This document shows positions 437 through 35,234 of a stretch of DNA of 64,000 nucleotides, one piece after another. The DNA is taken from contig OY781061.1 of assembly GCA_963676515.1 (NCBI GenBank), positions 992,001 to 1,056,000 of the forward strand, in the 5' to 3' direction. Under the pieces are notes generated by a model that worked only from the letters and a program-made list of their open reading frames with translations, was not told the origin of the DNA and searched no databases. Every line of letters begins with the position of its first letter. Position 1 is the first letter of the stretch. Origin of the DNA: G963667145 sp963676515 [NCBI: Candidatus Cloacimonadota bacterium] (GTDB lineage Bacteria > Cloacimonadota > Cloacimonadia > G963667145). A program made the translations under genes and the position numbers.

Positions 437-634
437 TCCCCCACTGACATACACTTTAACATCATTTACAAGTATATCCTCTTTTTCAAACATTTTTTTT
501 GCGTCTGCATAATAAAAAGAAGTTGCATGGCTTGTGTATTCCACGGCAAAATTCAAATTATCTTTTTCTCCTTCGTATGCATTTAAAGAAAATATGAAAA
601 TAAAAAGTAATGAAAATAAAATTGATTTCTTCAC
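431..634 (-). pseudogene. truncated NitT/TauT-type ABC substrate-binding protein (5' end only)
   Basis: This reads a GTG start, a signal peptide and about 65 residues that match the N-terminus of the intact gene at 32011-32997 almost residue for residue (for example YTSHATSFYYADAKKMF). After ...KVYVSGG the reading frame runs into the insertion-sequence end and stops. The intact copy continues with ASVATAFVREQF. The permease and ATPase genes that follow the intact copy are missing here, so no working transporter can be made from this locus. Confidence 0.88.
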
Positions 635-1430
635 GACAAGCTCCTTAATTAGCTACAAACCATTATCTTGTAACACTAATAAATCTAAAATTAATTTCTT
701 AAATATCCTTTTTTCTCTTTTTATCAAAAATTCGAGAAGAACCCAGAAGGTGTCTACAAATAGAAATTAACTATTCTTTGCCGTTATTTTTAGGAAAACA
801 TATCGATGTCAAGAGGAATCTTCTGATTATAATTAATTTACCCCAAATTTTTATATACTCATACCCACACTCAGCAAATAATCTGGATCGACATAGCGAT
901 GGTAAATAGTGGAAAATTGCACGAAGTGATTGTGCCAAAAGAACTTTACACCTGCTCCGATGGTATATTTTCGCAGTGATATTTGCAAACTACTAAATTT
1001 GTGGAAAGGAATATCGGTCGAAAGCAAGAAATTTTCATCATCTATCCTCAACACAACTTGCTTGCCTTTGCGGAACTCTGCTGCCCACTCATTCTCTTTT
1101 AGCGAAGTGCAAATCAGGTAATGCTCCAGTGCGAATAAGGACATCCCAAAAGATAAAGAGTAGTCGATCTCGCTCTCACCTTCCGAGTCTTGCCAATAAG
1201 ACAAGTTATTGCCGAGTAAGAACTTACTCCAGCGACAATTCGCTCCTGCGGTGGTTTTCAATCTTTTGTAACGAGTGAAATACAAGTAGTCGCTATCCAA
1301 AGAAAAGCAATATTTATCGACCATTTTGTTTATCGACAGATGATATTCGCTCACCTTGTCATCTGCGTTGTAAAGTTTTGCCCCCGCAGAAATACACGAG
1401 TCTTGCCAAGCAGGATTGAGCAAGAAATGG
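436..1430 (-). repeat. left arm of a ~1-kb inverted repeat (partner 31215-32204)
   Basis: Read on the minus strand, this segment carries most of the outer-membrane-type gene, the 200-bp spacer and the start of the substrate-binding protein gene. It matches the plus strand at 31215-32204 with scattered point differences and short indels. The left arm keeps the whole outer-membrane-type gene but loses the rest of the ABC gene. The right arm loses the 5' end of the outer-membrane-type gene but keeps the ABC operon. Remnants of the same insertion sequence touch opposite ends of the two arms. Confidence 0.88.
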
Positions 1431-1522
1431 CGAGCAGACTCCAGATACAAACGACTATCTGCTCGCAAACCAGAAAACGACAAAGTGAAAAAAAGCAATG
1501 CCAAATATATAACTTTTTTCAT
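851..1522 (-). CDS. predicted secreted or outer-membrane beta-strand-rich protein
   Basis: The product has 223 residues. It starts with a clear signal peptide (MKKVIYLALLFFTLSFSG) and is followed by alternating aromatic and polar segments such as YCFSLDSDYLYFTRYK and HFVQFSTIYHRY, as expected for beta-barrel strands. The motif LLNPAW near the N-terminus recalls the 'NPA' block of PorV/UPF0164-like barrels, but I would not assign the family on that. I chose the ATG at 1522; a TTG two codons upstream is possible, and neither has a strong ribosome site. A 5'-truncated copy lies at 31215-31794, and a second paralogue's last codons remain at 34385-34429. Function is unknown. Confidence 0.6.
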   Translation of the reverse strand: MKKVIYLALLFFTLSFSGLRADSRLYLESARHFLLNPAWQDSCISAGAKLYNADDKVSEYHLSINKMVDKYCFSLDSDYLYFTRYKRLKTTAGANCRWSKFLLGNNLSYWQDSEGESEIDYSLSFGMSLFALEHYLICTSLKENEWAAEFRKGKQVVLRIDDENFLLSTDIPFHKFSSLQISLRKYTIGAGVKFFWHNHFVQFSTIYHRYVDPDYLLSVGMSI

Positions 1523-1665
1523 AATCAAATTTATTGAACTAAAAATCTGTTAAGCTAAAGGGGAGTGTCACTTGTCGACTCAGGAAAACATACTTTTTTG
1601 CAATTTTGGGCTGAGCGTTGACTAGTGCGAATTGCAAATGTGTTTGGCTTATGGGCAAGCATTCA
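1523..1665. other. short non-coding gap between outer-membrane-type gene and hsdR
   Basis: This is 143 bp between two leftward genes. It includes an isolated TTGACT on the plus strand near 1618. I see no convincing terminator hairpin or gene here. Confidence 0.4.
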
Positions 1666-18795: not shown

Positions 18796-18973
18796 ATCCT
18801 AAAACCAATCCTTTTTAAATCTTTCTTTTGAAACCGTGTAATTCAATTTTCCTTGCTCATTGTAGCAAGACAATTTTTATTTATTGCTAAAAAAACTCTT
18901 GTCAATTTGAGAAGATTCTCCTCCGCTAGTTTTATTGAAGTTTGCGAACAATAATAATTTTAAGGATATTGCG
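18796..18973. other. divergent intergenic region between antiporter and dtd
   Basis: This 178-bp gap separates divergent genes and must hold both promoters. A TTGTCA near 18900 faces dtd. I see no good -10 partner. Confidence 0.3.
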
Positions 18974-19417: not shown

Positions 19418-19443
19418 AACTATTAAAAAAGGGAGCAGTATTT

Positions 19444-20739: not shown

Positions 20740-20754
20740 AACAAGAGGTTTGCA

Positions 20755-21552
20755 ATGAATCCCTACAAAATATCTGTAATCCAATTTCAGCCGAAATTTT
20801 TGCAAGTAGAAGAAAATCTGAAAAAAATCGAGAACCTCTGCTCTAATCTTACAACAGACCTCTTTGTCTTGCCAGAGCTAGCCACCTGTGGCTACGCTTT
20901 CGCTAGCCCAGAGGAGCTCCTCCAAGTAGCAGAGGACGGTCAAGCAGGCGTCAGTGCCAGATTTTTTACACGACTCTCTGCTCAGCTAGACGCCTCCATC
21001 GTCTATGGTTTCCCCGAGCTAAAAGGTGGCAAAGTCTACAACTCTGCACGCCTAGTCAACCCCGACGGCAGTAGCTATATCTACCAAAAGATACACCTTT
21101 TTGGAGCAGAAAAACTGTGGTTCACCCCCGGTAAAACTGGTTTGATGGTGGTAAAAGCCAAGAAAGGTGTCAAACTGGGCTTGATGATTTGCTTCGACTG
21201 GTTCTTCCCAGAAGTCGCCCGCACTCTGGCATTGCAAGGAGCACAGATCCTTTGCCAAGTCGCCAATCTGGTGTTACCGTGGTGTCAGCAGGCGATGCTC
21301 ACCCGCAGCCTAGAAAATCGCTGCATCAGCATCACAGCCAATCGAGTCGGCACAGAAAGGAACCAGGAGTATCATTACCGCTTCACAGGTGGCTCGCAGG
21401 TGGTAAGCCACACAGGGCAGAGGCTAGGGCAACTCGGAGAAGGCGAAGAGGGCATCCTCAGCGTGAGTGTCGATTTGGACGAGCCAACCCCTTGGCTGAA
21501 CGAGCACAACCATATTTTCTCCGATAGAAAGCCAGAATTCTACTTCAAGTAA
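20755..21552 (+). CDS. carbon-nitrogen hydrolase (nitrilase superfamily)
   Basis: The 265-residue protein carries the full catalytic triad: E41 in FVLPELATCGY, K112 in YQKIHLFG and C146 in MICFDWFFPE. It therefore cleaves a C-N bond in an amide, amidine or carbamoyl compound; the branch cannot be decided by eye. It sits 15 bp after deoA and is probably in the same transcript. Confidence 0.9.
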   Translation: MNPYKISVIQFQPKFLQVEENLKKIENLCSNLTTDLFVLPELATCGYAFASPEELLQVAEDGQAGVSARFFTRLSAQLDASIVYGFPELKGGKVYNSARLVNPDGSSYIYQKIHLFGAEKLWFTPGKTGLMVVKAKKGVKLGLMICFDWFFPEVARTLALQGAQILCQVANLVLPWCQQAMLTRSLENRCISITANRVGTERNQEYHYRFTGGSQVVSHTGQRLGQLGEGEEGILSVSVDLDEPTPWLNEHNHIFSDRKPEFYFK

Positions 21553-21646
21553 CGACAAGCAAAATTTTTGCTTCAACTAAAAAAACTATTGACTCACAAA
21601 CCTAAATAATAATAAAAACAAAACTGCTAAAAATTAAGGGGGAATT

Positions 21647-21958
21647 ATGAAAAACCTAATCAAATTACTTTTTTTACTCTTGCTGTCTTTCACTCTTTTT
21701 GGATGCATCGTTGATGAAGAAGAATGCGAAATATTAATTGTAAACAATTCTGGTTACGAAATCACCAGCGTTGCTGTGGACTACGGGGAAAATGTTCTTA
21801 GCTCTAATATTGCCAATGGCGAGACACGCTCTATCGGAGACTACGATGAATCGGAACACTATATCGACATCCAAACTACTTCCACAGACCCTGACGACTT
21901 TTATTCCAGAACCATAGACTGCTCGGGAGCTGGGAAATACGCTGTTTCTGTAAACTAA
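21647..21958 (+). CDS. small lipoprotein of unknown function
   Basis: The 103-residue protein has a signal peptide and lipobox LFGC (cysteine 20), then an acidic N-terminus (VDEEECE) and a compact beta-rich domain starting ILIVNNSGYEITSVAVDY. A strong GGGGGA ribosome site precedes the ATG, and a terminator follows, so it is expressed on its own. No family recognised. Confidence 0.8.
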   Translation: MKNLIKLLFLLLLSFTLFGCIVDEEECEILIVNNSGYEITSVAVDYGENVLSSNIANGETRSIGDYDESEHYIDIQTTSTDPDDFYSRTIDCSGAGKYAVSVN

Positions 21959-21971
21959 AACTTTTCCAAAG

Positions 21972-22003
21972 AAAAAGCCCTTCTTTTCTGAGGGGCTTTT
22001 TTT
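21972..22003 (+). terminator. rho-independent terminator after the small lipoprotein gene
   Basis: AAAAAGCCC and GGGGCTTTTTTT form a GC-containing stem around a short loop and end in a T-run, 13 bp after the stop codon. Confidence 0.85.
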
Positions 22004-22068
22004 GTATCAATAAAACCAGTTGACAATCTTTTTAGCTATTCATAACTGTGACCAAATTTGTCAAAGTT

Positions 22069-23826
22069 ATGTTAAAAAACACAAATAAAATCGCTTTTAT
22101 CCTTATTTTTGCTCTTTGTTTTTTGCAGATTCTATCTGCGGAAGAGATGGAAGAAGAGACCTACGAAACAGATGAGCACACCTCATTACTTTTTTATGAA
22201 ATCTTACCTTTGGATGCCCGCTATGCGACGGAAAAAGACTGGAAAAACTTTTACTTCCTTGACGAAGAGCAAATCAAAAAACTTTACTCTACCTCTATCA
22301 AAAAAAAATCTGACCTCCAAAAAATCGGCTTAGATTCGCTCACCAGTGAGAGATTGCTGTCTTATCTCACATTCCAGTCTGGCTCTATATATCTGCTCTC
22401 ACGCTTGGTAGATCAGCAAAAATATCACAACAAGCACAAGCATCTTCATCACAGCCAAAAGCTCTTTTGCAATTACAAAAACTCTCGCCTCGGATTTCTC
22501 ATGCAAAAAGACGCTGGCGAAAGCGACCAAATGGATTACAAAAACTGGTTCTTCCAGCAAACAAACCTCTCCTATCTGTCCAACCTGATATTGGGCTCGT
22601 ACAAGATGCGGCTAGGACAAGGGATAATCTTCGGCAATCGCCTCTCGCAAACCATCTCTTCCCTCTCCACACGCTCTCCCATCGCCACAGCCAGCCACAT
22701 CTCCCCTTACGCCTCTTTCACCGAGCAATGGTATCTGCACGGAGGCACCCTTACCGCACAGCTGGGCTCACTGCAAATCTCGCCATACTACAGCCAAAGC
22801 GAGTTAGATGTAAATCTGAAGAGCGACTCCATCAGCTCGATCGACGAATCGGGAATCCACCTAGAGAGCTCGCCCACGACCAACCTACAGGCACAAGGCG
22901 TGTATTCTGCGTGGCTTAGCGACAATCTACAATTAGGATACAACAGGGCAGAGTTCAAGTTTGACCGTCCCTTTTTGGACGCAAGCCAATCGCAATCTTA
23001 CCAAGTGCACTCATTCGACTTCCGCTACCAGCCTGGCTACGCGTCGTTTTTCGGCGAGATTGCCCAAGCAGACCAAAAAACTGGGCAAGTTTATGGATTA
23101 AAAATCAAGCACGACGACCTGCATCAAACCCTAATCTACCGCAACTTTGCAAAAAATCTCCCCACATACTTGGGCAAACCTATCACCCAGACAAACTCGT
23201 TCGACAACCAAAAAGGGCTGTACTACGGGGCTTTATGGCTTCCCTTACAAAATTTCAAATTCAACTTTTACCTCGATATTTGGCAAACGCCCCAAACTTC
23301 GTCCGAAGCCGAGATGCCACTTAGCGGACAAGAAATGCTTTTTTGGGGAAGATATTCCACTGCAAAACAACATTTTAGCCTGCAATACAAAATCCAGAAA
23401 AAAGAGCAACTCCTAAGCTCGGACGAAATCGGCGACCAAAAAGTTTGTGACTACAAAGTAGACTATCATCTAAATCTAGGAAAATTCTTCAGAATCAAAA
23501 CCCGCTACAACTACCGCACTTACGAAGAGAGTCAGCACAAATCAGGCTATCTAACCTACGCCGAACTCGGCTTTCGCCACACAATCTTCTCAGTCATCAC
23601 AAGAGCCGCCTACTACAAGGCAAACACGCCCGTGTATATGTATCAGCAAGGCGTGGACGGCACAATGCTCACCTCAGCTTTCAGCGGCGAAGACCTTTTC
23701 TACTATTTCTTGGCAAACAGCAAAATCCTGCCAAACACAAAACTGCAACTAAAATACTCCAACTACCATCAGAAAAGAGACCGCCAAGAGGTCACAGCCC
23801 AAATTCTACTCAGCAAAAAATTCTAA
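22069..23826 (+). CDS. outer-membrane beta-barrel protein with N-terminal helical (HhH-like) region
   Basis: The 585-residue protein has a signal peptide (MLKNTNKIAFILIFALCFLQ), then a segment of about 100 residues with two helix-hairpin-like turns (LDEEQIKKLYSTSIKKKSDL and LTSERLLSYL), then about 450 residues of alternating aromatic strands ending in LLSKKF, a C-terminal phenylalanine typical of barrels assembled by BAM. The layout resembles large barrels with ComEA-like HhH leaders found in the FCB group. A GTG seven codons upstream is an alternative start. TTGACA lies at 22020. Function unknown. Confidence 0.7.
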   Translation: MLKNTNKIAFILIFALCFLQILSAEEMEEETYETDEHTSLLFYEILPLDARYATEKDWKNFYFLDEEQIKKLYSTSIKKKSDLQKIGLDSLTSERLLSYLTFQSGSIYLLSRLVDQQKYHNKHKHLHHSQKLFCNYKNSRLGFLMQKDAGESDQMDYKNWFFQQTNLSYLSNLILGSYKMRLGQGIIFGNRLSQTISSLSTRSPIATASHISPYASFTEQWYLHGGTLTAQLGSLQISPYYSQSELDVNLKSDSISSIDESGIHLESSPTTNLQAQGVYSAWLSDNLQLGYNRAEFKFDRPFLDASQSQSYQVHSFDFRYQPGYASFFGEIAQADQKTGQVYGLKIKHDDLHQTLIYRNFAKNLPTYLGKPITQTNSFDNQKGLYYGALWLPLQNFKFNFYLDIWQTPQTSSEAEMPLSGQEMLFWGRYSTAKQHFSLQYKIQKKEQLLSSDEIGDQKVCDYKVDYHLNLGKFFRIKTRYNYRTYEESQHKSGYLTYAELGFRHTIFSVITRAAYYKANTPVYMYQQGVDGTMLTSAFSGEDLFYYFLANSKILPNTKLQLKYSNYHQKRDRQEVTAQILLSKKF

Positions 23827-24080
23827 TCGTCCTTTAACCCTAAATCAGCAACAACTTCTGCTATATTTCCAAAACTCATTTTTTCTTTTTTCAGCGATAT
23901 ATCTCTTTATTGTATAGTAAGATAAGAAAACAAAAAAAATAAAGTCCTTTACAGATTTCTCTCAAATAATCCTTTGGTATTATCTTTTGATAAATCAATC
24001 GATAATAAAATTCTTTCAATTTGCAATGCATTCTAAAAATTTTCGCTAAAATACTGTAAAATAGAAAGATGAGGGAAAAA
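23827..24080. other. AT-rich intergenic region upstream of mltA-like gene
   Basis: About 250 bp of very AT-rich sequence with no frame or hairpin I can support. It presumably contains the promoter for the transglycosylase gene. Confidence 0.35.
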
Positions 24081-25277
24081 ATGAAAATCAGTTTTAAATT
24101 TTGTCTAATCGTTGCTTTTTTATTCTCATTCGTTTTAGCTTCTGCTGGAACACTAAAGAAAATCGACTACTCACAATCGCCTCTATTTGAAGACGATTTG
24201 GATTATCAAAATTTAAAAGCTGGCATCTCCCAAAGTTTAACTTATTTGGAAAGAGTCCCTAGCGACCGCCAATTTCGCTTCGGAGAAGACAGCTACACCG
24301 CTGAGCAAATGAAAGCCTCTCTCAAGCTCTTTGTCGATTACCTCCACGGCAATCCTCAGCCCAAGCAAATGAACAGCTTCATCAGCACCTTTTACAATGT
24401 CTATGTCTCCACTGGGCAAAGCGGCAACGAAGATGTCCTCTTCACCGCTTACTGCCAGCCGATGATCAAAGGTAGCCTCACTAAAACCGCAGAATTTTGC
24501 GTGCCTATCTGCTCCAAACCTCTTGACCTTGTCCAAAAAAAAATCGACGGACAGTGGAAATCGGGTCGTTACGATGCAGACGGCAATTTCGTGCCTTACT
24601 ACACAAGAGCCGAGATAAATTCGCTGAAGATATTAGAAAAAAAAGCCACGCCCATCGCTTGGGTCAGCTCCAAGCTGGACAGACTTTACCTAGAAATAGA
24701 AGGCTGCGGCGACCTCTTATTGCCCGATGGCAACTCTCTGCACCTGCAATACCAAACCAAAAACGGACACAGCTACGGTAGCATCGGCAAATATATGATG
24801 CGAGTCAAGAACTTGCCTGCCAACCAAGTGGGCATTTTGCACCTAAAAAAATACTTCGCCAAACATCCTGAAGAGTTGCAGGCGACTCTCAACATCAACA
24901 AGAGTTTCGTGTTTTTCACTCGCGGCAATGGCAAATCTATGGGATGCCTAAATGTCCCTATCACTCCGGGCAGGACTATCGCCACAGACCGCTCTGTATT
25001 CCCCTCGGCAGCTTTAGGATTTATCCAGAGCAAAAAGCCCGTGGTGGATGGACAAAACAGAGTTAAAGGGTGGAAAAACTTTGGAAGGTTCGTCCTCAAT
25101 CAAGACACTGGCGGAGCGATAAGAGGAGCTGGACGCGGAGACATCTACTTCGGTGGCGGAACATACGCCGAAATAGCCGCCAACACCCTCAAGCATAGCG
25201 GCAAAATGTACTTTATGGTTTTGAAACCCAGCATCGACCTAGCTAGCTACACAGGCGAGATGTTGGTGCAAAACTAG
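24081..25277 (+). CDS. mltA: membrane-bound lytic murein transglycosylase A homologue
   Basis: It cleaves the MurNAc-GlcNAc bond in peptidoglycan with formation of 1,6-anhydro-MurNAc. The 398-residue product has a signal peptide and an MltA domain (FTAYCQPMIKG, YYTRAEI, IEGCGDLLLPDG). The C-terminal 3D domain reads QDTGGAIRGAGRGDIYFGGG with the catalytic-type aspartates. A plain signal peptidase I site replaces the lipobox seen in E. coli MltA, so the enzyme is probably soluble in the periplasm. The second ATG is preferred because GAGGGA lies at the right distance. Confidence 0.9.
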   Translation: MKISFKFCLIVAFLFSFVLASAGTLKKIDYSQSPLFEDDLDYQNLKAGISQSLTYLERVPSDRQFRFGEDSYTAEQMKASLKLFVDYLHGNPQPKQMNSFISTFYNVYVSTGQSGNEDVLFTAYCQPMIKGSLTKTAEFCVPICSKPLDLVQKKIDGQWKSGRYDADGNFVPYYTRAEINSLKILEKKATPIAWVSSKLDRLYLEIEGCGDLLLPDGNSLHLQYQTKNGHSYGSIGKYMMRVKNLPANQVGILHLKKYFAKHPEELQATLNINKSFVFFTRGNGKSMGCLNVPITPGRTIATDRSVFPSAALGFIQSKKPVVDGQNRVKGWKNFGRFVLNQDTGGAIRGAGRGDIYFGGGTYAEIAANTLKHSGKMYFMVLKPSIDLASYTGEMLVQN

Positions 25278-25314
25278 CCACAAACCTTTTCACTCATCAG
25301 CTAGCCGCAAAAAC

Positions 25315-26151
25315 TCAACCGTTCTCTTTTCCCATATGGAACTTATTTTGCATCGTCTGGAAAAAAGTCTTTTTCCCCAGTTTGACAAACTCCACTTTTT
25401 GGCTAGATTTGGTCAAAACGACACTGTCACCATCTTGCAGATACATCAAGTTCGTTCCGTCCAACTGCAAGGTTGACTCTTCACCCACCGCTTTCACGCG
25501 GAACTCGAACCTATCTTCGGCAAAGAACACCATCGGACGCACAGTCAGCAGATGCGGATTGATCGCATTTATCACCACCGAATCCATCGTCGGATTGAGA
25601 ATAGGACCACCTACAGAGAGATTGTAGCCCGTCGTCCCCGTGGGCGTTGCCATCAGCACGCCATCCGCTCTAGCCTGATAAACAAAGTCACCGTTGTTAA
25701 AAACCTCGAACTCGATGAGCTTGGCGTTGTGAGCACGATAAATCACCGCATCGTTCAGCACTTGCCGATGAGCCATCTCTTGCCCAGTACGCATCACCCG
25801 CACATCCAGCACCATCCTTTTTTGCACTCGATACTCTCCTCGCACCAATGACGACAACGCTTCTGCAACATCTGCCAGCATTATCTCCGACAAGAACCCT
25901 AACCTACCCATGTTGATCCCCAATATCGGCAGCCGAAGCTGCAACGCCAACTGACTAGCATAGAGGATAGTGCCATCACCGCCGAAAACCAGCAAGAAGT
26001 CTATATCCTCGCTACTCTTGCGAATAAAATCGGGATAGATAGCCAAATCTTCCAGTCGCACGAACTCGTGTTTCCCTTGCAAATCTGCCAGCACCTGCAC
26101 CACTTTATCTATAAACTTACTTTGCTTATTTATCACCACCGCAAACTTCAT
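25315..26151 (-). CDS. nadK: NAD kinase
   Basis: It phosphorylates NAD to NADP. The 278-residue protein has the GGDGT motif (57-61), LNDAVIYR (the NE/D motif) and the long nucleotide-binding block around MATPTGTTGYNLSVGGP, all diagnostic. Length is normal. It is monocistronic by its surroundings: convergent with the mltA-like gene (37 bp apart) and with a 1-kb gene-free region upstream. Confidence 0.97.
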   Translation of the reverse strand: MKFAVVINKQSKFIDKVVQVLADLQGKHEFVRLEDLAIYPDFIRKSSEDIDFLLVFGGDGTILYASQLALQLRLPILGINMGRLGFLSEIMLADVAEALSSLVRGEYRVQKRMVLDVRVMRTGQEMAHRQVLNDAVIYRAHNAKLIEFEVFNNGDFVYQARADGVLMATPTGTTGYNLSVGGPILNPTMDSVVINAINPHLLTVRPMVFFAEDRFEFRVKAVGEESTLQLDGTNLMYLQDGDSVVLTKSSQKVEFVKLGKKTFFQTMQNKFHMGKENG

Positions 26152-26714: not shown

Positions 26715-26873
26715 TGGATTCCTGCTTTCGCAGGAATGAGGGCTGGTGCTAATATATCCAAGTGGTGCGTAACAATTAAGGTTGGTGTTAATAAATGGTA
26801 AGTGGTGTGTAACAATTAAGGTTGGTGGTGCTTCCTTGCCTTTCTCCCTCATCCTCGCGAAAGCAGGGATCCA
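26715..26873. repeat. MITE-like unit with 28-bp inverted ends
   Basis: The ends 26715-26742 and 26846-26873 are inverted copies of each other (24 of 28 positions). The left end is itself palindromic (ATTCCTGC...GCAGGAAT). The interior holds two 27-bp direct copies of AAGTGGTG(C/T)GTAACAATTAAGGTTGGTG at 26760 and 26800. No coding capacity. It looks like a REP doublet or small non-autonomous element. Confidence 0.6.
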
Positions 26874-27158: not shown

Positions 27159-27929
27159 ATGAATGACGAAAGTATAGAAATTATAAAAATAGAAGATTTT
27201 GAATACTATAAAGATGAATATAACTCATATCATAGAGTTCTTAGTAAAGAAGATTATACTAATATTATTTCTTTTTATCAAAGTCATTTATATCTAGATG
27301 GAGAATTTGAAGCCGAAGATTTAATTGAAAAATTAACAGAAAAACAGCTTGAAAGGAAATTCCAAAATGATATTAAAAGATCTCAAAGAATATTTGAGAT
27401 CTTAAGAGTCTGGGGACTAGTGCCTCAGGAAAATGCCAGAATATTAGATATTGGTTGCGGTTATGGTATTTTTCTTGATCAATGGATAAGAAAGGGTTTG
27501 GGTTGTGGGTCTGGAATTGAAATTTCAAATCTATCCAAAAAACTTTCTCAAAAATTAAATCCGAATCTTCAAATTGAAATTGTTGATGTTAATTCAATAG
27601 AAAATATTGTTATAAGCAAAGATGTTTCTTTTGTTTTTGCTTTTGATATTCTTGAGCATCTTTTTAATGTTGAGGAATCTTTAAATATTCTCTCAACTAA
27701 AACGAAGAAAGGGGTGGTGGTGGTTGCAGAATTGCCCATTATTCATTCTAATTTTGATAGAAAGAGATTAGAGAAATATAAATACTTATATCCAACGAGA
27801 CATGTTCATTTATACACTCGTGAAGCGGTCAAAACCCTTTTTGTCAAAGCAGGTTTTAAAATTATTAATAGCTTACTGATAAAAGATAATTCTAAATTAT
27901 TAATAGCAGTTAAAAAATGCAAGAATTAG
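27159..27929 (+). CDS. class I SAM-dependent methyltransferase
   Basis: The 256-residue protein has ILDIGCGYGIFLDQW (motif I, about 99-113), GSGIEISNLS (motif II) and VFAFDILEHLFNVEESL, the 'HxLEH' region of Methyltransf_23/11 small-molecule methylases. The N-terminal 90 residues are acidic and not recognised. The gene is AT-rich and lacks a visible ribosome site. It overlaps the next gene by 13 bp, and that one overlaps a third, forming a compact unit. Substrate unknown; sugar or lipid-linked substrates are common for this subfamily. Confidence 0.85.
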   Translation: MNDESIEIIKIEDFEYYKDEYNSYHRVLSKEDYTNIISFYQSHLYLDGEFEAEDLIEKLTEKQLERKFQNDIKRSQRIFEILRVWGLVPQENARILDIGCGYGIFLDQWIRKGLGCGSGIEISNLSKKLSQKLNPNLQIEIVDVNSIENIVISKDVSFVFAFDILEHLFNVEESLNILSTKTKKGVVVVAELPIIHSNFDRKRLEKYKYLYPTRHVHLYTREAVKTLFVKAGFKIINSLLIKDNSKLLIAVKKCKN

Positions 27930-28564
27930 CTAAACTACTAGGGAAATCAATAACAAGGTATATCTTGCCTGGTATGGTGTTTTATCTTTTAATTGTATTT
28001 TTTCCTATTGAATTATTATTCTCTGATATAGATCTGAAAGTAACTGAAACGGGAAGCATCTTGTCTTTAATGTTGGTTGTAGGGTATCTTTTAGATGCAA
28101 TCGGAGCATACCGTTATACGCTATGCTTCAAATCTTATAATGAAGAGAAAATAAATTTAACAAATGAATTGAAGAGTCTTTCAAATTTGAAATTCAATTC
28201 AGATGATCCAGATAAGTTTATAGCTCAAATATGGTATGAAAAAAATGAGTCATATAATAGAATAATTGAAGAACGAAGTGAGTGGGTTATGATATTGATT
28301 TCATCATCTATTTTACTTCTAGCAGTTCCTGAATATGTTATTTTTTGTTTTTTTAGCAATAAAATTTCATGTTTTGAGTTAATACCAATCTGCTTTTTAT
28401 CTTTTATGTTATCCTACTTATCTGCAAAAACGGGTATCAAAAGAATGAAGGCACATAATCAAAAAATGATTTATTGTTTTACTGAACTTAATAAAACAAG
28501 ACAACTTATTAAAATGAAGGAACATTTAAATTTTTCTAATGAAAGAAATTATATCATATATTGA
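27917..28564 (+). CDS. unknown membrane protein, middle gene of three-gene cassette
   Basis: The 215-residue protein has four predicted membrane segments in two pairs (about 12-35 and 45-65; 117-145 and 150-170), split by a charged helical region (about 70-115, rich in N, E and K). It overlaps the genes on both sides. I recognise no family. Confidence 0.65.
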   Translation: MQELAKLLGKSITRYILPGMVFYLLIVFFPIELLFSDIDLKVTETGSILSLMLVVGYLLDAIGAYRYTLCFKSYNEEKINLTNELKSLSNLKFNSDDPDKFIAQIWYEKNESYNRIIEERSEWVMILISSSILLLAVPEYVIFCFFSNKISCFELIPICFLSFMLSYLSAKTGIKRMKAHNQKMIYCFTELNKTRQLIKMKEHLNFSNERNYIIY

Positions 28565-29177
28565 CTTCACCGAATTAAGAAATTGGCTAGTATTAATTTT
28601 AGCTTTAATCGGTGGAACAATAACAATCAAAACTTATATTTCCTCTATTAAACAAAGTAAACTTGACAATACTTATAAAACTCTCGACTATCTAAGAAGA
28701 CATATTACAGATAATCAAATTCAAACTTTCATCACCCTTTTTCAAGCAAATAACCCTTTAGGAGTTCCTAAAAATGAATTTCATTTTGCTGATGGACGAT
28801 TTGACACAATAGAAAATATGTTTTCTGAAGGTGGTTGTGGTAATGGTGACATACATAATATGATTGAAGTCTTCAATTTAGTTTCAAAGAAATTAAGCAA
28901 AGGAATTTTAAATGAGGATTTGATTTGGTATGAATATGGACAGATTATGTCTACTTGCTACGAATGGACAAAATATTTAGACAACAATATGGAAAAGATG
29001 TTCATTAAAGAAAGACAAGAAGGTGTGAGTGACAAAGAGTATAAAGAAATGATCAAATTTTGGAAATCTCAGTATAAAGGAATGGATAAGCTTTATATTG
29101 ATTCTCATAAATATATTGAAAAGCACACTAAAAATAGATTAGATTTACCTATCAAACATTACACATATATAGAATAA
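28539..29177 (+). CDS. unknown protein with one N-terminal membrane anchor
   Basis: The 212-residue protein has one membrane segment (WLVLILALIGGTITI, about 15-30) followed by a long, mostly helical cytoplasmic part with aromatic and acidic residues. The layout is like DUF4760-type anchored helical proteins, but I cannot assign it. It overlaps the preceding gene by 26 bp. Overlapping membrane and anchored-helical genes beside a methyltransferase between repeats and an IS element suggest an accessory cassette. Confidence 0.6.
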   Translation: MKEIISYIDFTELRNWLVLILALIGGTITIKTYISSIKQSKLDNTYKTLDYLRRHITDNQIQTFITLFQANNPLGVPKNEFHFADGRFDTIENMFSEGGCGNGDIHNMIEVFNLVSKKLSKGILNEDLIWYEYGQIMSTCYEWTKYLDNNMEKMFIKERQEGVSDKEYKEMIKFWKSQYKGMDKLYIDSHKYIEKHTKNRLDLPIKHYTYIE

Positions 29178-29353
29178 AAACTGCATACAACAAGCTAGCA
29201 TAGATAATGTGGCGGTTCAGTTGTTACACGATCTTTAGCAGTTTCTAACAGCACGCCAAATCAGAGATTTGACAGAGTATGAATTGAAAAGTTCACAGTA
29301 AAATCTATGATGTTGCTCCGAGGCTATCTTGAAAGGAGGTAACGTCTCAAAGT

Positions 29354-30667
29354 TGGTGTAAATTTAGAAAATGAAAATGGTCACTTTCGTTCTTATGTTC
29401 TAAATAAAAAGAACAAGGAGACAAAAATGACCAAAACAAGCAATAATAAATTGAAAGAGCTTACCCAACTTGTCAAGCAAGAAACGGGGAATAATTTAGC
29501 AGAATTATTAAAAATAGCTGTAAATCAAACCGTTCAGGCAGAATTAGATCGGCATTTGAATGCTAAAAAATATGAAAGAAACGAGGCGAGAACGACTTAT
29601 AGAAGTGGCACTAGAAAAAGGGGACTTAAAACAAGTATTGGTAATCTGGAGATTGATTTTCCGAAAGTTAGGAGTGGTTCGTTTACATCTTCCGTTATGG
29701 AAAGATATCAAAGGGTCGATAGAGCGATGATAAGTACCATTCAGAACGCTTATATTAATGGAGTCTCAACTAGGAAAATGCATAGATTGTTTGAAAAAAT
29801 GGGTATTAAAAATCTTGATAAAAGTACGGTTAGTCGCTATATCCAGCCAATTCAACACGAGGTAAATAAATGGAAATCTCGCAAATTGCTTTCAAAATAT
29901 ATTTATATTTGGGTTGATGCTATCCATAGCAAAGTGCGTGAAGATGGGCAAGTAAAGCCACAAACGATTATGACTGCGATAGGGTTAAGGGAAGATGGTA
30001 GACGAGAAATTTTGGGATTTGTAATGGGAAATAGAGAGGCTAAAACCACTTGGAAAGAGTTTTTTATGAATTTAAAAAACAGAGGACTGAAAGAAACAGA
30101 GCTTTGGATAAGGGATGATCACGATGGACTCAAGGCTGCTTTAAATGAGTGTTTCCCTTGCCAAACTCAACAAAGGTGCATAGTTCATTGGCAAAGAAAT
30201 CTTTTGGATAAAGTCTCCAAAAAAGATTTGTCTTGGCTGGTTCCTTTGAGTAGCAACTTTGTTAAATCAACCACACTGGAAGAGTTTAAATATCATAAAG
30301 AAAAGCTGTTAGAGGCTGTAGAATCTAAAGGGAAAATGCAGTTGTTTGATTGGCTTGAAGAAAGTTTGCCAGAGGTGAGCAATTTTATAAGTTTATCGGG
30401 GAAACATTGGTCAAAAATTAAAAGTACGAATCCGATTGAAAGGCTAAATGAAGAGATTAGAAGAAGGGAAAAAAGCATTAGAATTTTTCCAAATCAAGCG
30501 AGCTGCAATCTTTTGATTGGGGCAATTTTGATTCAACAAAATGAGGATTGGACTGAAGGTAAAATCTATCTAAATGTCGAAAAAGAAAAAAAACAGAACC
30601 TGCTTATTAAATTGAAGATAGCAGAGAATTTTTAGTAATAATTTAGAGCATGAGAGAATTTACACCA
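29354..30667 (+). mobile_element. IS256-family insertion sequence (complete)
   Basis: One transposase gene is bracketed by 11-bp inverted ends: TGGTGTAAATT at 29354-29364 and its complement AATTTACACCA at 30657-30667. Total length of about 1.3 kb is normal for the family. I could not find a convincing target duplication. Similar but imperfect 25-bp sequences (CTTGAAAGGAG...AAAG) lie on both outer sides. Confidence 0.8.
29427..30635 (+). CDS. IS256-family transposase (full length)
   Basis: The 402-residue Mutator-type transposase has the usual order: N-terminal DNA-binding region, first aspartate in YIWVDAIHSK, second in LWIRDDHDGLKAAL and glutamate in NPIERLNEEIRRR. The C-x2-H-like segment RCIVHWQRN is also typical. 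An AAGGAG site precedes the ATG. The frame is intact, so the element may be active. Confidence 0.96.
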   Translation: MTKTSNNKLKELTQLVKQETGNNLAELLKIAVNQTVQAELDRHLNAKKYERNEARTTYRSGTRKRGLKTSIGNLEIDFPKVRSGSFTSSVMERYQRVDRAMISTIQNAYINGVSTRKMHRLFEKMGIKNLDKSTVSRYIQPIQHEVNKWKSRKLLSKYIYIWVDAIHSKVREDGQVKPQTIMTAIGLREDGRREILGFVMGNREAKTTWKEFFMNLKNRGLKETELWIRDDHDGLKAALNECFPCQTQQRCIVHWQRNLLDKVSKKDLSWLVPLSSNFVKSTTLEEFKYHKEKLLEAVESKGKMQLFDWLEESLPEVSNFISLSGKHWSKIKSTNPIERLNEEIRRREKSIRIFPNQASCNLLIGAILIQQNEDWTEGKIYLNVEKEKKQNLLIKLKIAENF

Positions 30668-30802: not shown

Positions 30803-30895
30803 ATGATTTTATTTGTATTGTATCGCAACTTAATAAAAGATAAAGGCGAAGTTTTTGAAGTAATAGACATTTCCTGGACAGAGAGTATTATATGA
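30803..30895 (+). pseudogene. possible 3' remnant of an unidentified gene
   Basis: A 30-codon frame ends IKDKGEVFEVIDISWTESII and its TGA overlaps the ATG of the truncated DUF1697 gene (ATGA), as in an operon. The peptide looks like a real C-terminus rather than random sequence, but upstream sequence is non-coding, so only the tail would be left. Family not recognised. Confidence 0.35.
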
Positions 30896-30975
30896 AAAGA
30901 TATATTGCCTTATTGAGGGGAATCAATGTAAGTGGAAAAAATAAGATATCCATGTCTGAATTAAAGAAGGAGTTT
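30892..30975 (+). pseudogene. 5' remnant of a DUF1697-family gene
   Basis: The first 28 codons read MKRYIALLRGINVSGKNKIS then MSELKKEF, the characteristic start of DUF1697 proteins (ALLRGINVxGxxxIxMxEL). The frame then runs straight into an insertion-sequence fragment on the opposite strand. The remaining ~150 residues of the gene are absent from the window. Confidence 0.8.
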
Positions 30976-31218
30976 ACAGAACCTGTCCATTTTTTAGTTA
31001 CATTTTTTGTAACCAAAAAGAGCAATCTTATTAGCGAATCTTCACTCGGGAACGACGATTTCGACTTAGTAATTCGCCTCAAACTGCGATGATAATTTTC
31101 TATTGAATTCGTGGTATAAATGAGTTTCCTGATTTCTGCTGGATACTTAAAAAAAGAGCATAATCCTTCCCAATTTTTCTCCCAAGACTTGGCAATGTAG
31201 GGATATTTTTTATCCCAT
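30976..31218 (-). mobile_element. internal fragment of an IS256-type transposase gene
   Basis: On the minus strand it encodes KWDKKYPYIAKSWEKNWEG through VTKNVTKKWTGSV, nearly identical to the transposase end at 1-403. Both termini of the insertion sequence are missing: one side joins a DUF1697 remnant and the other joins the outer-membrane-type gene fragment. It is therefore a recombination scar rather than a clean insertion. Confidence 0.85.
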
Positions 31219-31794
31219 TTCTTGCTCAATCCTGCTTTGCAAGACTCGTGTATTTCTGCGGGGGCAAAATTTTACAACGCCGACGACAAGGTGAGCGAGT
31301 ATCATCTGTCGATAAACAAAATGGTCGATAAATATTGCTTCTCTTTGGATAGCGACTACTTGTATTTCACTCGTTACAAAAAATTGAAAACCACCGCAGG
31401 AGCGAATTGTCGCTGGAGTAGGTTCTTACTCGGCAATAACTTGTCTTATTGGCAAGATTCGGAAGGTGAAAGCGAGATTGACGACAGTTTTTCTTTGGGG
31501 ATGTCCTTATTCACTCTGGAGCATTACCTGATTTGCACTTCGCTAAAAGAGAATGAGTGGGCAGCAGAGTTCCGCAAAGGCAAGCAAGTTGTGTTGAGGA
31601 TAGATGATGAAAATTTCTTGCTTTCGACCGATATTTTTTTCCACAAATTTAGTAGCTTGCAAATATCACTGCGAAAATCTACCATCGGAGTAGGTGTAAA
31701 GTTCTTTTGGCACCATCGCTTCGTGCAATTTTCCACAGTTTACCATCGTTATGTCGATCCAGACTATTTGCTGAGTGTGGGTATGAGTATATAA
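31215..31794 (+). pseudogene. 5'-truncated copy of the outer-membrane-type gene
   Basis: This is the second copy of the gene at 851-1522. It lacks the signal peptide and first ~35 residues, starting within ...FLLNPA(W/L)QDSC, with 12 or so substitutions afterwards. Without a signal sequence the product could not be exported. A Met codon at 31222 (TTG) is a track artefact, not a likely start. Confidence 0.8.
31751..31781 (+). repeat. 31-bp direct repeat, left copy, flanking the ABC operon
   Basis: It is identical to 34385-34415 and lies within the last codons of the outer-membrane-type gene (VDPDYLLSVG). A third copy with one mismatch is on the minus strand at 864-894 in the left inverted arm. 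Confidence 0.9.
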
Positions 31795-31838
31795 AAATTT
31801 GGGGTAAATTAATTATAATCAGAAGATTACTCTTGACA

Positions 31839-31869
31839 TCGATATGTTTTCCTAAAAATAACGGCAAAG
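31839..31869 (+). promoter_or_regulatory. possible promoter of the NitT/TauT-type ABC operon
   Basis: TTGACA followed after 17 bp by AAATAA lies in the spacer before the substrate-binding protein gene. The corresponding position is retained in the left repeat arm. The -10 match is weak. Confidence 0.35.
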
Positions 31870-32010
31870 AATAGTTAATTTCTATTTGTAGGCACCTTTT
31901 GGGTTCTTCTTGAATTTTTAATAAAAAGAGAAAAAAGGATGTTTAAGAAATTAATTTTAGATTTATTAGTGTTACAAGATAATGGTTTGTAGCTAATTAA
32001 GGAGTTTGTC

Positions 32011-32997
32011 GTGAAGAAATCAATTTTATTTTCATTACTTTTTATTTTCATATTTTCTTTAAATGCATACGAAGGAGAAAAAGATAATTTGAATTTTGCC
32101 GTGGAATACACAAGCCATGCAACTTCTTTTTATTATGCAGACGCAAAAAAAATGTTTGAAAAAGAGGATATACTTGTAAATGATGTTAAAGTGTATGTTA
32201 GTGGGGCATCAGTAGCTACTGCTTTTGTAAGAGAACAGTTTGATGTGGCTTATATGTGTCTTGTTCCTGCTATCGTTACATATGCAAATGGCAAAGTGCC
32301 GATCAAAATTATTGCTGGGACACACCTAGATGGCTATGGAATAGTTGCTAATCACAAAAAAATCAAAAGTCTTAAAGATTTAGATAAAAAGGGTGTAAAA
32401 ATTGGTGTGGGTCCGAAAGGCACAGTAACAAGCTTTATTCAAGAGATTGTTATAGAAAAAGCGAAGTTAGATTCTAAAAAAGCAAGAAGAAATTTTGTAA
32501 CAATGAACTCTTCAAAACAGATTATGGCTCTCAAAGCGGGGTTGGTGGATGCGGTTGTGTTGCCAGAGCATTTTGTTTCATTGGCTGCAAGTTTAGAGGG
32601 GATGGAAATTCTTGTAAAAAGTTGTGAACTATGGAAAGATTTACAAGGAAGTGTAATTGTAGTTTCAGAAAAACTTTTCAAAGAAAGACCTGAAATAGTC
32701 CAAAAAATCAAAAAAGTGAATAAAGAAGCTATCAAACAAATCAATGAAAATAATGATGAGGCATCAGTAATTGTTGCCCAAAATTTGAATATTTATCAAG
32801 ATAAAATTAAATACCAGACAAAATCCTCAAATATTGACTTAACAGTTACACCGCAAATTGCAAAAAGTTCTATAGAAAATCTTAAATTAACGAGTGAAAT
32901 ATCAATAAAAGCGGTGCAAGAAGTTATTGATAAAATGGTTCAATATGGTTTCATTCGAAGTTCTTTTGATGCTCGAGAAATTTTAGTATTTGAGTAG
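32011..32997 (+). CDS. NitT/TauT-type ABC substrate-binding protein
   Basis: The 328-residue periplasmic protein of the NMT1/SsuA/ThiY class has a signal peptide (ends SLNAYEG), NFAVEYTSHATSFYYADAKK as first ligand-side segment, and DVAYMCLVPAIVTYANG and IGVGPKGTVTSFIQEIV in the hinge lobes. Start is GTG with AAGGAG upstream. Substrates of the class include thiamine precursors, sulfonates, nitrate and aromatic acids, and no riboswitch is seen to choose among them. A truncated duplicate lies at 431-634. Confidence 0.9.
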   Translation: MKKSILFSLLFIFIFSLNAYEGEKDNLNFAVEYTSHATSFYYADAKKMFEKEDILVNDVKVYVSGASVATAFVREQFDVAYMCLVPAIVTYANGKVPIKIIAGTHLDGYGIVANHKKIKSLKDLDKKGVKIGVGPKGTVTSFIQEIVIEKAKLDSKKARRNFVTMNSSKQIMALKAGLVDAVVLPEHFVSLAASLEGMEILVKSCELWKDLQGSVIVVSEKLFKERPEIVQKIKKVNKEAIKQINENNDEASVIVAQNLNIYQDKIKYQTKSSNIDLTVTPQIAKSSIENLKLTSEISIKAVQEVIDKMVQYGFIRSSFDAREILVFE

Positions 32998-33004
32998 GAA
33001 GTAA

Positions 33005-33751
33005 ATGAATAAATTTATTAGCATTTTATTTAAAAATAGCCCTATTCTTATTTTTCTACTGATTTGGGAGTGTGCAGGCAGAGTTGATCAATCCCCTCTT
33101 TTGCCTTCATTTTCGATGGTTATTGTGGAGTTTTATAATCTTTTAGAGTCTGGATTTCTTGTTGAAAACCTCGCTCATTCATTTATAAGGGTTTTGGTAG
33201 GATATCTTTCTGGTGGTCTTTTTGGGATTATGGTTGGGATTTTCATGGGGATGAATAAGGCTATAGAAGAAGCATTAAAACCTTTAATTAGTATGTTGCT
33301 TTCAATCCCAACACTCGGTTGGTTACCTCTTATGATGCTTTGGGTTGGGATTAACGAGGCATTACCCATTATATTGATTTTTATTTGTGCTTTTTTCCCA
33401 GTGGCTTATGCAACACTTTTGGGAATCAAGGAGACTCCAAAAGAGTTCATTAATAGTGCTAAAGCACTGGGTGCCTCCAATTTCTATATCTTAATAAAAA
33501 TCATTTTGCCTTTGGCATTACCTTCTATTTTTACAGGACTTAGGTTGGAGGCTGGAATGGTTTGGAAAACTGTTTTGGCTGCTGAAATGTTTGCTATACC
33601 TACTGGTATTGGTGCTATGATGATTAACGCAGAATCTCTCATAAGAGTAGATGTCATTATGGTAACATTATTAGTTTTGGGATTTATGAGCTTTGGGTTT
33701 GAAAAGGCAATTTATGCACTAGAGAAATTTCTTACAAACAAGTGGAGGTAA
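33005..33751 (+). CDS. NitT/TauT-type ABC transporter permease
   Basis: The 248-residue inner-membrane protein is of the SsuC/TauC/ThiX family with about six membrane segments. The cytoplasmic EAA loop INSAKALGASNFYILIKIIL contacts the ATPase. LLSIPTLGWLPLMMLWVG is also typical. It lies 7 bp after the binding-protein gene. Confidence 0.93.
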   Translation: MNKFISILFKNSPILIFLLIWECAGRVDQSPLLPSFSMVIVEFYNLLESGFLVENLAHSFIRVLVGYLSGGLFGIMVGIFMGMNKAIEEALKPLISMLLSIPTLGWLPLMMLWVGINEALPIILIFICAFFPVAYATLLGIKETPKEFINSAKALGASNFYILIKIILPLALPSIFTGLRLEAGMVWKTVLAAEMFAIPTGIGAMMINAESLIRVDVIMVTLLVLGFMSFGFEKAIYALEKFLTNKWR

Positions 33752-33752
33752 A

Positions 33753-34382
33753 ATGGGATATATCAAACTGCAAAATATTTTTACTGATTTTTGTCTGCAA
33801 AACATCAATTTAAATATTAAAAATGGAGACTTTGTAGTTATTCAAGGTCATTCAGGTGCTGGCAAGAGTACGGTTTTAAATGCTTTGGCAGGATTTGTAG
33901 AATATGAAGGGGATATCTATTTGGATGGGAAATGCCTAAATGATGTCCCAATCCAAAAACGAGGAGTAGGATATTTGCATCAGGCAATTCATCTTTTTCC
34001 TAATTTAAGTGTTTTTGAAAATATTTCATTTGGTCTCAAAGCACAAAAAACGGGGAAAAAGATTGTTGTTAAAGAAGTAAACTCTATTATGCAAAGGCTT
34101 CAAATATCTCATTTGCTTCAAAGATACCCCAAAAATTTAAGTGGAGGAGAGAAGCAAAGAGTGGGAATAGCACGGTCAATTATAACAAAGCCCAAAGTTT
34201 TGCTTTTAGACGAACCGCTTTCTAGTCTTGATGAAGTGACAGCACGGGGTATCCGTAAAGAGTTAAAATCACTTGCTAAAGCATATAATTTGACTGTAAT
34301 ATATGTGACTCACAATTTGGTGGATGCTGAAGAACTTGCTGATAAAATTGTTTATATAAACAAAGGTAAAATTTTACAATGA
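33753..34382 (+). CDS. NitT/TauT-type ABC transporter ATPase
   Basis: The 209-residue ATPase has Walker A GHSGAGKSTVLN, Q-loop region YLHQAIHLFPNL, signature LSGGEKQRVGIARS and Walker B VLLLDEPLSSLD. It is slightly short at the C-terminus for the SsuB/TauB family, which usually has about 230-260 residues. Its TGA is followed after only 2 bp by the 31-bp direct repeat, so the end of the gene coincides with a recombination junction and some native C-terminal codons may be lost. Confidence 0.92.
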   Translation: MGYIKLQNIFTDFCLQNINLNIKNGDFVVIQGHSGAGKSTVLNALAGFVEYEGDIYLDGKCLNDVPIQKRGVGYLHQAIHLFPNLSVFENISFGLKAQKTGKKIVVKEVNSIMQRLQISHLLQRYPKNLSGGEKQRVGIARSIITKPKVLLLDEPLSSLDEVTARGIRKELKSLAKAYNLTVIYVTHNLVDAEELADKIVYINKGKILQ

Positions 34383-34384
34383 CG

Positions 34385-34415
34385 ATGTCGATCCAGACTA
34401 TTTGCTGAGTGTGGG
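34385..34415 (+). repeat. 31-bp direct repeat, right copy, flanking the ABC operon
   Basis: Identical to 31751-31781. In the plus frame it continues as DVDPDYLLSVGAEL and a TAG at 34427-34429, that is, the last codons of a paralogue of the outer-membrane-type gene with a different C-terminus (GAEL instead of GMSI). On the minus strand it encodes the end of ogt. Confidence 0.9.
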
Positions 34416-34895
34416 AGCAGAATTGTAGGTGTCTGTTTCTAGCTGGAGCAGTTTTTCTTTCATCGCCAGTCCCAGATTAAATCCGACCAGTTTTTTATTT
34501 GCTCCGATTACTCTGTGGCATGGTATCACCAAAGGCAAGGGATTGAGTTTCAAAGCCAGACCAACAGCTCTTGCTGCCTTGGGATTTTCGATATTTTGGG
34601 CGATTTGTCCGTAGGTGGTTACTTCTCCAAAAGGTATTTTTTGCGTCTCAGCCCAAACTTTCTTTTTAAATTCGCTACCGACTAAATGGATGGGTAGATT
34701 GAAATCTTTTCTTTTCTCGCTGAGATACTCCAAGATTTGCTCTTGGGCACGAGTCAAAATTTCCGCTTGGGGTAAGTAGCTAGAGTCAAAAGGAAGATAC
34801 TCTTTGCCGATGTAGACTTTTACTAGACCTTCGCGGCTTGCTAGCAGTGTAACTTTGCCCAAAATAGAGTCAAACCCTTTATAGAAAAATTGCAT
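34398..34895 (-). CDS. ogt: methylated-DNA-protein-cysteine S-methyltransferase
   Basis: It removes methyl groups from O6-methylguanine by irreversible transfer to its own cysteine. The 165-residue protein has the active-site motif PCHRVI with C126, the helix-turn-helix segment PFGEVTTYGQIAQ and the ANKKLVGF(N)LG end of the domain. The last 11 or so residues (TYNSAPTLSK) are encoded by the complement of an outer-membrane-gene remnant, so the native tail may have been replaced or the two genes were always convergently overlapping. Confidence 0.93.
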   Translation of the reverse strand: MQFFYKGFDSILGKVTLLASREGLVKVYIGKEYLPFDSSYLPQAEILTRAQEQILEYLSEKRKDFNLPIHLVGSEFKKKVWAETQKIPFGEVTTYGQIAQNIENPKAARAVGLALKLNPLPLVIPCHRVIGANKKLVGFNLGLAMKEKLLQLETDTYNSAPTLSK

Positions 34896-34927
34896 ACTTG
34901 AGCCTTTTTTTATTGTTATTGCTTTAT

Positions 34928-34959
34928 AAAAAAAATGGTCACGACCTTAGCCGTGACCA
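34928..34959 (-). terminator. orphan terminator hairpin upstream of ogt
   Basis: On the minus strand TGGTCACG and CGTGACCA form a perfect 8-bp stem with an 8-base loop, followed by eight T. It precedes ogt and no leftward gene lies before it, so it would end a short leader or an independent small RNA. Confidence 0.65.
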
Positions 34960-35130
34960 CCAATTCCGGAGAAGAATTTCACCCCTAATGGTAAAAGGAG
35001 TGTTTTTTTACTAACCACTAAAATACTAGAAGAGGTTTATGGTGAAATCCTGCAAGTTTTTTTATTCTTTTTGTTTATTAAGAAAAATAAGGTGTTGACA
35101 TCAAAAAAGAAGTTAATAAAGTAAAGAGAA
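34928..35130 (-). ncRNA. candidate small structured RNA or attenuated leader (speculative)
   Basis: A minus-strand TTTACA with TAAAAT 16 bp downstream (about 35130-35157) could start a transcript that ends at the orphan terminator. In between, ATTTCACC and GGTGAAAT (34976-34983 and 35041-35048) can close a stem around smaller pairings. I could not match it to 6S, SRP, tmRNA or a known riboswitch. The opposite strand would fold too, so direction rests on the T-run alone. Confidence 0.3.
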
Positions 35131-35234
35131 TATTTTACTCTAAAATTTGCTTTTGTAAAAATGTTTGACGATTATCAATAGGGTAAAAATCTTTGAACGA
35201 TTAAGAGAAATAAACAAAAAAACAGGAGATAACA

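What the first reader, a model, noticed from the sequence alone, without database searches (positions are those of the whole stretch)
31751..34415. ABC operon framed by a 31-bp perfect direct repeat at the 3' end of a gene
The repeat is the tail of an outer-membrane-type gene. After the ATPase stop the same 31 bp recurs and continues with a different ending (GAEL rather than GMSI) from a paralogue. The layout resembles site-specific insertion that restores a gene's 3' end, or a crossover within two paralogues that brought in the whole operon. No integrase is inside the unit, so recombination between paralogues is more likely.
Basis: partly seen in the sequence, partly recalled or inferred. Interest (0 to 1): 0.6.

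Follow-up and report, generated by a model that had tools for sequence, protein, structure and literature searches.

The report
Transporter operon beside a collapsed gene copy
A three-gene transporter operon sits between a broken copy and a tiny leftover of the same surface-protein-like gene, most likely the scar of ordinary DNA rearrangement between gene copies and not the mark of a new mobile element.

Summary
The 31-bp perfect direct repeat (31751-31781 and 34385-34415) is real and is the longest exact direct repeat in the window. (1) A second copy of the left unit lies in the same window, inverted, at 439-1430: OMP-type gene with the GMSI tail, spacer, and first 196 bp of the operon, 96.3% identical. 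(2) The right side holds more OMP-like sequence than 31 bp. The last 15 coding bases of the ATPase match the 5' part of the left OMP-type gene at 14 of 15, the only such place in the window on either strand. So the right flank reads best as a second, direct OMP copy, internally deleted down to the tail that ogt overlaps. (3) The ATPase stops where five of five relatives read on.

Best reading: the operon, with the GMSI copy, was recombined into a resident OMP-type gene ending in GAEL next to ogt. Microhomology joined the operon's end to OMP sequence, and the surplus copy then collapsed. Site-specific insertion is not supported: no recombinase lies inside, and the boundary cuts a cargo gene. 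No close relative was reached, so the empty site was not seen and the order of steps is inferred. Interest is modest.

The parts
31215..31794 (+). Left OMP-type gene fragment (5' end lost), ends VDPDYLLSVGMSI
   Evidence: ORF 31222-31794; 31215-32206 is 96.3% identical, no gaps, to the reverse strand of 439-1430, where the gene is full length; no Pfam or NCBIfam match for this fragment, no Pfam match for the full-length copy
31751..31781 (+). Left copy of the 31-bp repeat
31795..32010 (+). Spacer upstream of the operon
   Evidence: 31782-32010 has GC 0.253; shared with the inverted copy; no Rfam match up to E 1 in 31600-32200
32011..32997 (+). Substrate-binding protein of an NMT1/SsuA-type ABC importer
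   Evidence: PF13379 4.4e-19; TIGR01728 2.8e-29, below that family's cut-off
33005..33751 (+). Permease
   Evidence: PF00528 7.1e-27; best NCBIfam SaoP and TauC, below cut-off
33753..34382 (+). ATPase, 209 aa, without the C-terminal tail of its relatives
   Evidence: PF00005 3.4e-35; best NCBIfam WtpC, below cut-off; five of five relatives read on past the aligned end
34365..34384 (+). OMP-like stretch at the ATPase end: 34365-34379 matches OMP 31263-31277 at 14 of 15
   Evidence: (D12)
34385..34415 (+). Right copy of the 31-bp repeat
34385..34428 (+). Tail of the second OMP copy, VDPDYLLSVGAEL
   Evidence: same frame as the OMP gene; tblastn of the full paralogue finds it weakly (34375-34425, E 0.051)
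34398..34895 (-). ogt; its stop and last five codons lie in the right repeat copy
   Evidence: PF01035 3e-32; 12 residues after the conserved LE; in 10 of the 14 relatives looked at the alignment ends at that place and 2-15 residues follow, in the other four it runs on
30976..31230 (-). IS256-type transposase fragment abutting the left OMP gene
   Evidence: 96.9% to 79-333; ORF 30888-31229 hits NF033543 at 1.5e-23
30892..30978 (+). 5' fragment of a DUF1697 gene, cut at the IS256 fragment
   Evidence: 29 residues, PF08002 1.9e-11
439..1430 (-). Inverted second copy: OMP-type gene with GMSI tail, spacer, first 196 bp of the binding-protein gene
   Evidence: 37 mismatches in 992
851..1528 (-). 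Full-length OMP-type paralogue, 225 aa
1..438 (+). IS256-type element breaking the second copy of the binding-protein gene; runs off the window
   Evidence: 79-333 is 96.9% identical to the fragment at 30976-31230; break seen

Best explanation
The layout is a rearrangement scar, not a mobile element. A unit made of an OMP-type gene (tail GMSI) plus a three-gene ABC importer operon was recombined into a second OMP-type gene (tail GAEL) that overlapped ogt. The donor DNA was a circle or tandem copy in which the 3' end of the ATPase gene had been joined to the 5' part of the OMP gene through about 15 bp of microhomology. Crossing over within the OMP genes left OMP - operon - OMP - ogt. The second OMP copy had no start and decayed by an internal deletion. 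Its last codons stayed because ogt's 3' end overlaps them. The 31-bp repeat is what remains of the two direct OMP copies. Shown: the repeat, the inverted paralogous copy, the OMP-like stretch at the ATPase end, the short ATPase and the ogt overlap. Inferred: the circle or tandem intermediate, the crossover, the deletion and their order.
For: Second copy of OMP, GMSI tail and operon start at 439-1430, 96.3%. The last 15 coding bases of the ATPase match the left OMP gene at 14 of 15 (18 of 21 over 34365-34385; next best site in that gene 12 of 21). This is the only other such place in the window on both strands; none of the other 2570 operon 15-mers exceeds 13 of 15 with that gene on the same strand, and 0 of 2000 shuffled OMP sequences reach 14. 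The OMP reading frame is kept across the remnant (VKFYNDD, then VDPDYLLSVGAEL). The ATPase lacks a C-terminal tail present in five of five relatives. GC is 0.423 in 31215-31781, 0.328 in 31782-34384, 0.424 in 34385-34900. The two copies differ more at silent sites in the OMP gene (11 of 103.8) than in the binding-protein gene (1 of 37.0), as a mosaic would. Mismatch density is 28 of 536 before and 9 of 456 from the repeat on, Fisher p 0.007; split at the ORF end instead, p 0.016.
Against: No relative with an intact OMP(GAEL)-ogt locus and no operon was seen. The best statistical change point in mismatch density lies at 31941, not at the repeat, and is weak (42 of 2000 permutations reach it). 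The match of the ATPase end is poorer with the full-length paralogue (16 of 21). The right remnant can also be read in register with the OMP tail as a plain divergent paralogue: YNDDVDPDYLLSVGAEL fits the tail at 11 of 17 residues (26.2 bits), better than its fit to the OMP 5' end (18.1 bits, E 0.24). That would make the 15-bp match a coincidence. The rest of the second operon copy lies outside the window.
Confidence: 0.45

Rival explanations
1. One-step insertion by template switching. Foreign operon DNA was copied into the tail of a single OMP gene, and the copying strand returned to the gene upstream of where it had left, at the 15-bp microhomology. That duplicated the target. MSI is only read-through into the insert and GAEL is the native tail. 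The OMP-operon unit was duplicated elsewhere later.
For: Same microhomology at the return point; low GC of the insert, 0.328 against 0.42 on both sides; after the shared Gly the left gene has three codons and a stop, as read-through could give; needs only one OMP locus.
Against: A later duplication should leave similar silent divergence in OMP gene and operon, but it is 0.106 against 0.027, on few sites. The low GC right of the stop is also normal for a spacer (34900-35234 has 0.287).
Confidence: 0.25
2. The right flank is simply the tail of a divergent paralogue. A single non-homologous join of the shortened ATPase gene to that tail made the junction, and the 31 bp are identical because paralogues are.
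For: 43 bp around the repeat are 88% identical in register; YNDDVDPDYLLSVGAEL aligns to YHRYVDPDYLLSVGMSI; the two larger copies of the gene differ at 28 of 536 sites before the repeat.
Against: It leaves the unique 14-of-15 match of the ATPase end to the OMP 5' region as chance.
Confidence: 0.15
3. Site-specific integration of an element at an att site in the 3' end of a gene, with 31 bp as the core, the integrase acting from elsewhere.
For: Perfect direct repeats bound a 2.6-kb unit of other base composition at a gene's 3' end.
Against: No recombinase between the repeats; the ATPase is short at the right boundary. In three of the four fetched stretches around the operon's relatives no exact direct repeat of 18 bp or more occurs; in the fourth, L097, 83 repeated 18-mers occur, the ten printed being near 2759-2831, away from the operon, and the others not looked at.
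Confidence: 0.05
4. Assembly error: reads of two OMP loci were joined at the shared 31 bp.
For: The repeat is as short as assembly words often are (recalled); further copies of the OMP gene and of an IS256-type fragment exist here.
Against: A wrong switch at the repeat cannot place the 31 bp next to the ATPase end; that junction must exist in some molecule (inference).
Confidence: 0.07

Closest known systems
Ectopic recombination between paralogous genes, with microhomology-mediated joins (homology-facilitated illegitimate recombination is one described form; only passages of PMC6382021 seen)
   Same: Short homologies at the joins; a paralogue in the same genome; no recombinase needed inside
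   Different: The mechanism here is read only from the scar; the host's recombination genes were not looked for
Integrative elements inserted in the 3' end of a gene (genomic islands; recalled)
   Same: Direct repeats at both ends, cargo genes between, 3' end of a gene as the site
   Different: No integrase, a cargo gene short at the boundary, and the target's last residues changed
IS256-family insertion sequences
   Same: IS256-type sequence borders both copies of the unit on one side
   Different: None seen at the right end of the operon in copy 2; 31 bp is not an IS256 target duplication (8-9 bp, recalled)
NMT1/SsuA-type ABC importers
   Different: The ATPase is shorter at its end than in its relatives

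Membership tests
Site-specific integrative element at a gene's 3' end | Direct repeats (att) at both ends | tested here: met
   31-bp exact repeat
Site-specific integrative element at a gene's 3' end | Recombinase gene inside the element | tested here: not met
   The three ORFs on the operon strand are binding protein, permease and ATPase; one further ORF of at least 80 aa, 32439-32744 on the minus strand within the binding-protein gene, was not scanned
Site-specific integrative element at a gene's 3' end | Target gene's 3' end restored | tested here: not met
   Left gene ends GMSI, right tail GAEL; the left gene also lacks its 5' end
Site-specific integrative element at a gene's 3' end | Boundaries outside the cargo genes | tested here: not met
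   ATPase short at the right boundary against five of five relatives
Site-specific integrative element at a gene's 3' end | Circular or excised form | not testable with these tools
   Needs DNA or reads
IS256 composite transposon | An IS256 copy at each end of the unit | tested here: not met
   Fragment only at the left (30976-31230); the next two genes on the right are ogt and ygfK and the window's self-comparison shows no copy of it there
Recombination between paralogues | A paralogue carrying the same tail and operon start | tested here: met
   439-1430, 96.3%
Recombination between paralogues | Mosaic divergence on the two sides of the crossover | tested here: inconclusive
   p 0.007 for a split at the repeat, but the best change point is at 31941, 42 of 2000 permutations
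Recombination between paralogues | Intact recipient locus in a relative | not testable with these tools
   No own genome and no close relative among the loci returned
NMT1/SsuA-type ABC importer | Binding protein, permease and ATPase in one operon | tested here: met
   same order in five of the six loci with the binding protein, permease alone in the sixth

The most novel reading that the evidence does not exclude
The two repeat systems are still active. The direct OMP repeat lets the operon be lost or amplified, and the inverted 992-bp copies flip about 30 kb, exchanging OMP gene ends and operon state between two loci, so cells would switch a surface protein and a transporter together.
Probability: 0.05. 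Interest if true: 0.5.

Novelty: new member of a known kind. Interest (0 to 1): 0.25.

Why it matters
It suggests how a transporter operon can settle beside an overlapping gene pair without a mobile element and leave a repeat that looks like an attachment site. Such scars can be mistaken for integration sites when only the repeat is examined.

Tried and rejected
Own genome: not held. Close relatives: one genome-contig scan with the ygfK protein gave 80 loci, best identity 53%. Viral contigs: the OMP paralogue, a 23-base repeat pattern, the binding protein and the IS256 transposase found no relative. Phylum: rplB was at most 64% identical in 61 and 41 genomes sampled from the phyla of two fetched loci (59 of 61 and 41 of 41 matched), so the host probably lies outside both. 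I guessed Cloacimonadota from memory and could not test it. In the four stretches fetched around the operon's relatives the OMP paralogue has no match at E<=1 and ogt only two weak ones (E 0.016 and 0.37). Riboswitch upstream of the operon: none in Rfam up to E 1. Promoter and terminator scan: about as many sites as in shuffles (16 against 13.0, 3 against 2.8). Linkage of the operon to ygfK: no binding-protein match in the DNA held for 80 ygfK loci, one weak permease match, ATPase matches of at most 40% in 16 loci. Replication origin as the cause of the skew flip: the 13 DnaA-box matches (8.9 expected; box consensus recalled) form no cluster at 26-31 kb, though two lie in the left OMP gene at 31637 and 31729; not decisive. 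Papers: listing only; listing, then passages of PMC6382021; listing, then abstract and section list of PMC12863080; listing only. No search was made for this junction in print.

The count of Ogt relatives and the number of differing tail residues were also put right.

Full report
What is there. The window holds an exact 31-bp direct repeat at 31751-31781 and 34385-34415. It is the longest exact direct repeat found; 20 Markov sequences of the same length reached 15-19 bp. Between the copies lie a substrate-binding protein, a permease and an ATPase of the NMT1/SsuA type. The left copy is the end of an OMP-type ORF ending GMSI. The right copy starts two bases past the ATPase stop and ends GAEL; the Gly is common, the last three residues differ. 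The ogt gene on the other strand ends inside the right copy, so that ogt and the GAEL tail overlap by 31 bp (34398-34428).

The left gene is broken too. It lacks its 5' end at about 31215 and abuts a fragment of an IS256-type transposase gene (30976-31230), which in turn cuts a DUF1697 gene after 29 codons. The IS256 fragment and the OMP gene share CCATTT[T/C]TTGCT at their join.

A second copy of the unit is in the window. Positions 439-1430, reversed, match 31215-32206 with 37 mismatches in 992 and no gap. There the OMP-type gene is full length (851-1528, 225 aa), has the same GMSI tail and spacer, and is followed by the first 196 bp of the same binding-protein gene, which an IS256-type element then breaks at 438. 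So each locus keeps one part readable: the OMP gene at 851-1528 and the operon at 32011-34382.

The right junction holds more OMP-like sequence than 31 bp. The last 15 coding bases of the ATPase, GGTAAAATTTTACAA, match the left OMP gene near its 5' end (31263-31277) at 14 of 15. Over 34365-34385 the match is 18 of 21 with this copy and 16 of 21 with the full-length paralogue; the next best site has 12 in either. No other place in the window, on either strand, reaches 14 of 15. Of the other 2570 operon 15-mers none exceeds 13 with the left OMP gene, and 0 of 2000 shuffled OMP sequences reach 14. Read in the OMP frame, the stretch gives VKFYNDD followed by VDPDYLLSVGAEL, against AKFYNADD at the OMP 5' end and VDPDYLLSVGMSI at its 3' end. 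I take this as a second OMP copy in direct orientation with its middle deleted. The rival reading, a plain divergent tail (YNDD against YHRY), is also open, and as a peptide the remnant fits the tail better than the 5' end (26.2 against 18.1 bits).

The ATPase is short. Relatives of the binding protein were found in 6 of 299 genomes of the phylum of locus L067 (not named by the tool; I take it for Bacillota) and in 0 of 296 of the phylum of an Ignavibacteriales locus, both at E<=1e-20 (the tool notes that the empty answer had no positive control). The permease lies next to the binding protein in all six, the ATPase in five; in the sixth none was found in 13.5 kb. In all five the ATPase reads on past the point where the window's stops, one of them (L093) being matched in two pieces. 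The three complete ORFs go on for 39, 16 and 140 residues. Ogt is not unusual: it has 12 residues after the conserved LE; in 10 of 14 relatives the alignment ends there and 2-15 residues follow, in the other four it runs on.

How it most likely arose. The operon end was joined to OMP sequence by microhomology, giving OMP - operon - OMP. This was recombined into a resident OMP gene ending GAEL beside ogt, and the surplus copy shrank to the part that ogt overlaps. In support of two different OMP genes, silent divergence between the copies is higher in the OMP gene (11 of 103.8 sites) than in the binding-protein gene (1 of 37.0), and mismatches are 28 of 536 before the repeat and 9 of 456 from it on (Fisher p 0.007). 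Against a neat crossover at the repeat, the best change point lies at 31941 and is weak (42 of 2000 permutations). A one-step template-switch insertion is the main rival.

Site-specific insertion fails three of the four features that could be tested: no recombinase seen inside, a cargo gene short at the boundary, and a target end that is changed and not restored. A composite IS256 transposon fails for lack of a right-hand copy.

What the operon may do. Ten neighbours from three fetched stretches were scanned. Molybdenum-cofactor genes (YqeC, a MobA-like transferase, XdhC, MoCF_biosynth) lie near the operon in L099, DUF364 metal-chelation genes in L098 and L099, and a helix-turn-helix plus PBP_like gene in L097. 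The ATPase's best NCBIfam match is the tungstate protein WtpC, below cut-off. Import of a molybdenum- or tungsten-related substrate is a guess.

Limits. The window's own genome is not held. The empty site was therefore not seen, and the time order of the steps is inferred.

Noticed in passing
window 7639-26151 against 34398-57872: Third-position GC skew on the + strand is negative in 14 of 15 genes of the left block and positive in 17 of 17 of the right block, whatever the gene strand (mending). Of the other 12 genes examined, the three at 1666-7222 are slightly positive (0.06-0.08), the four at 27159-30635 are positive but for one, the two OMP copies are near zero and the three operon genes positive. 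The flip lies inside the span of the two inverted 992-bp copies, so an inversion between them is possible; a replication origin is the alternative, and the positive genes inside the span speak against a simple inversion unless they came later.
   Followed up: partly
window 29427-30635: A complete IS256-family transposase gene that gave no DNA match to the fragments at 79-333 and 30976-31230.
   Followed up: no
window 12570-14855, 27159-29177, 47667-49734: Genes of low GC (0.26-0.35), below most other genes examined; possibly acquired.
   Followed up: no
window 1666-7222: A type I restriction-like gene set directly upstream of the full-length OMP-type gene (named from reading, not tested against families).
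   Followed up: no
window 3666-3712, 4097-4570, 26735-26827, 48727-48816: Short tandem or near repeats.
   Followed up: no
L099 1077-10033 and L098 3493-9225: Relatives of the ABC operon near molybdenum-cofactor genes (L099) and DUF364 genes (both).
   Followed up: partly
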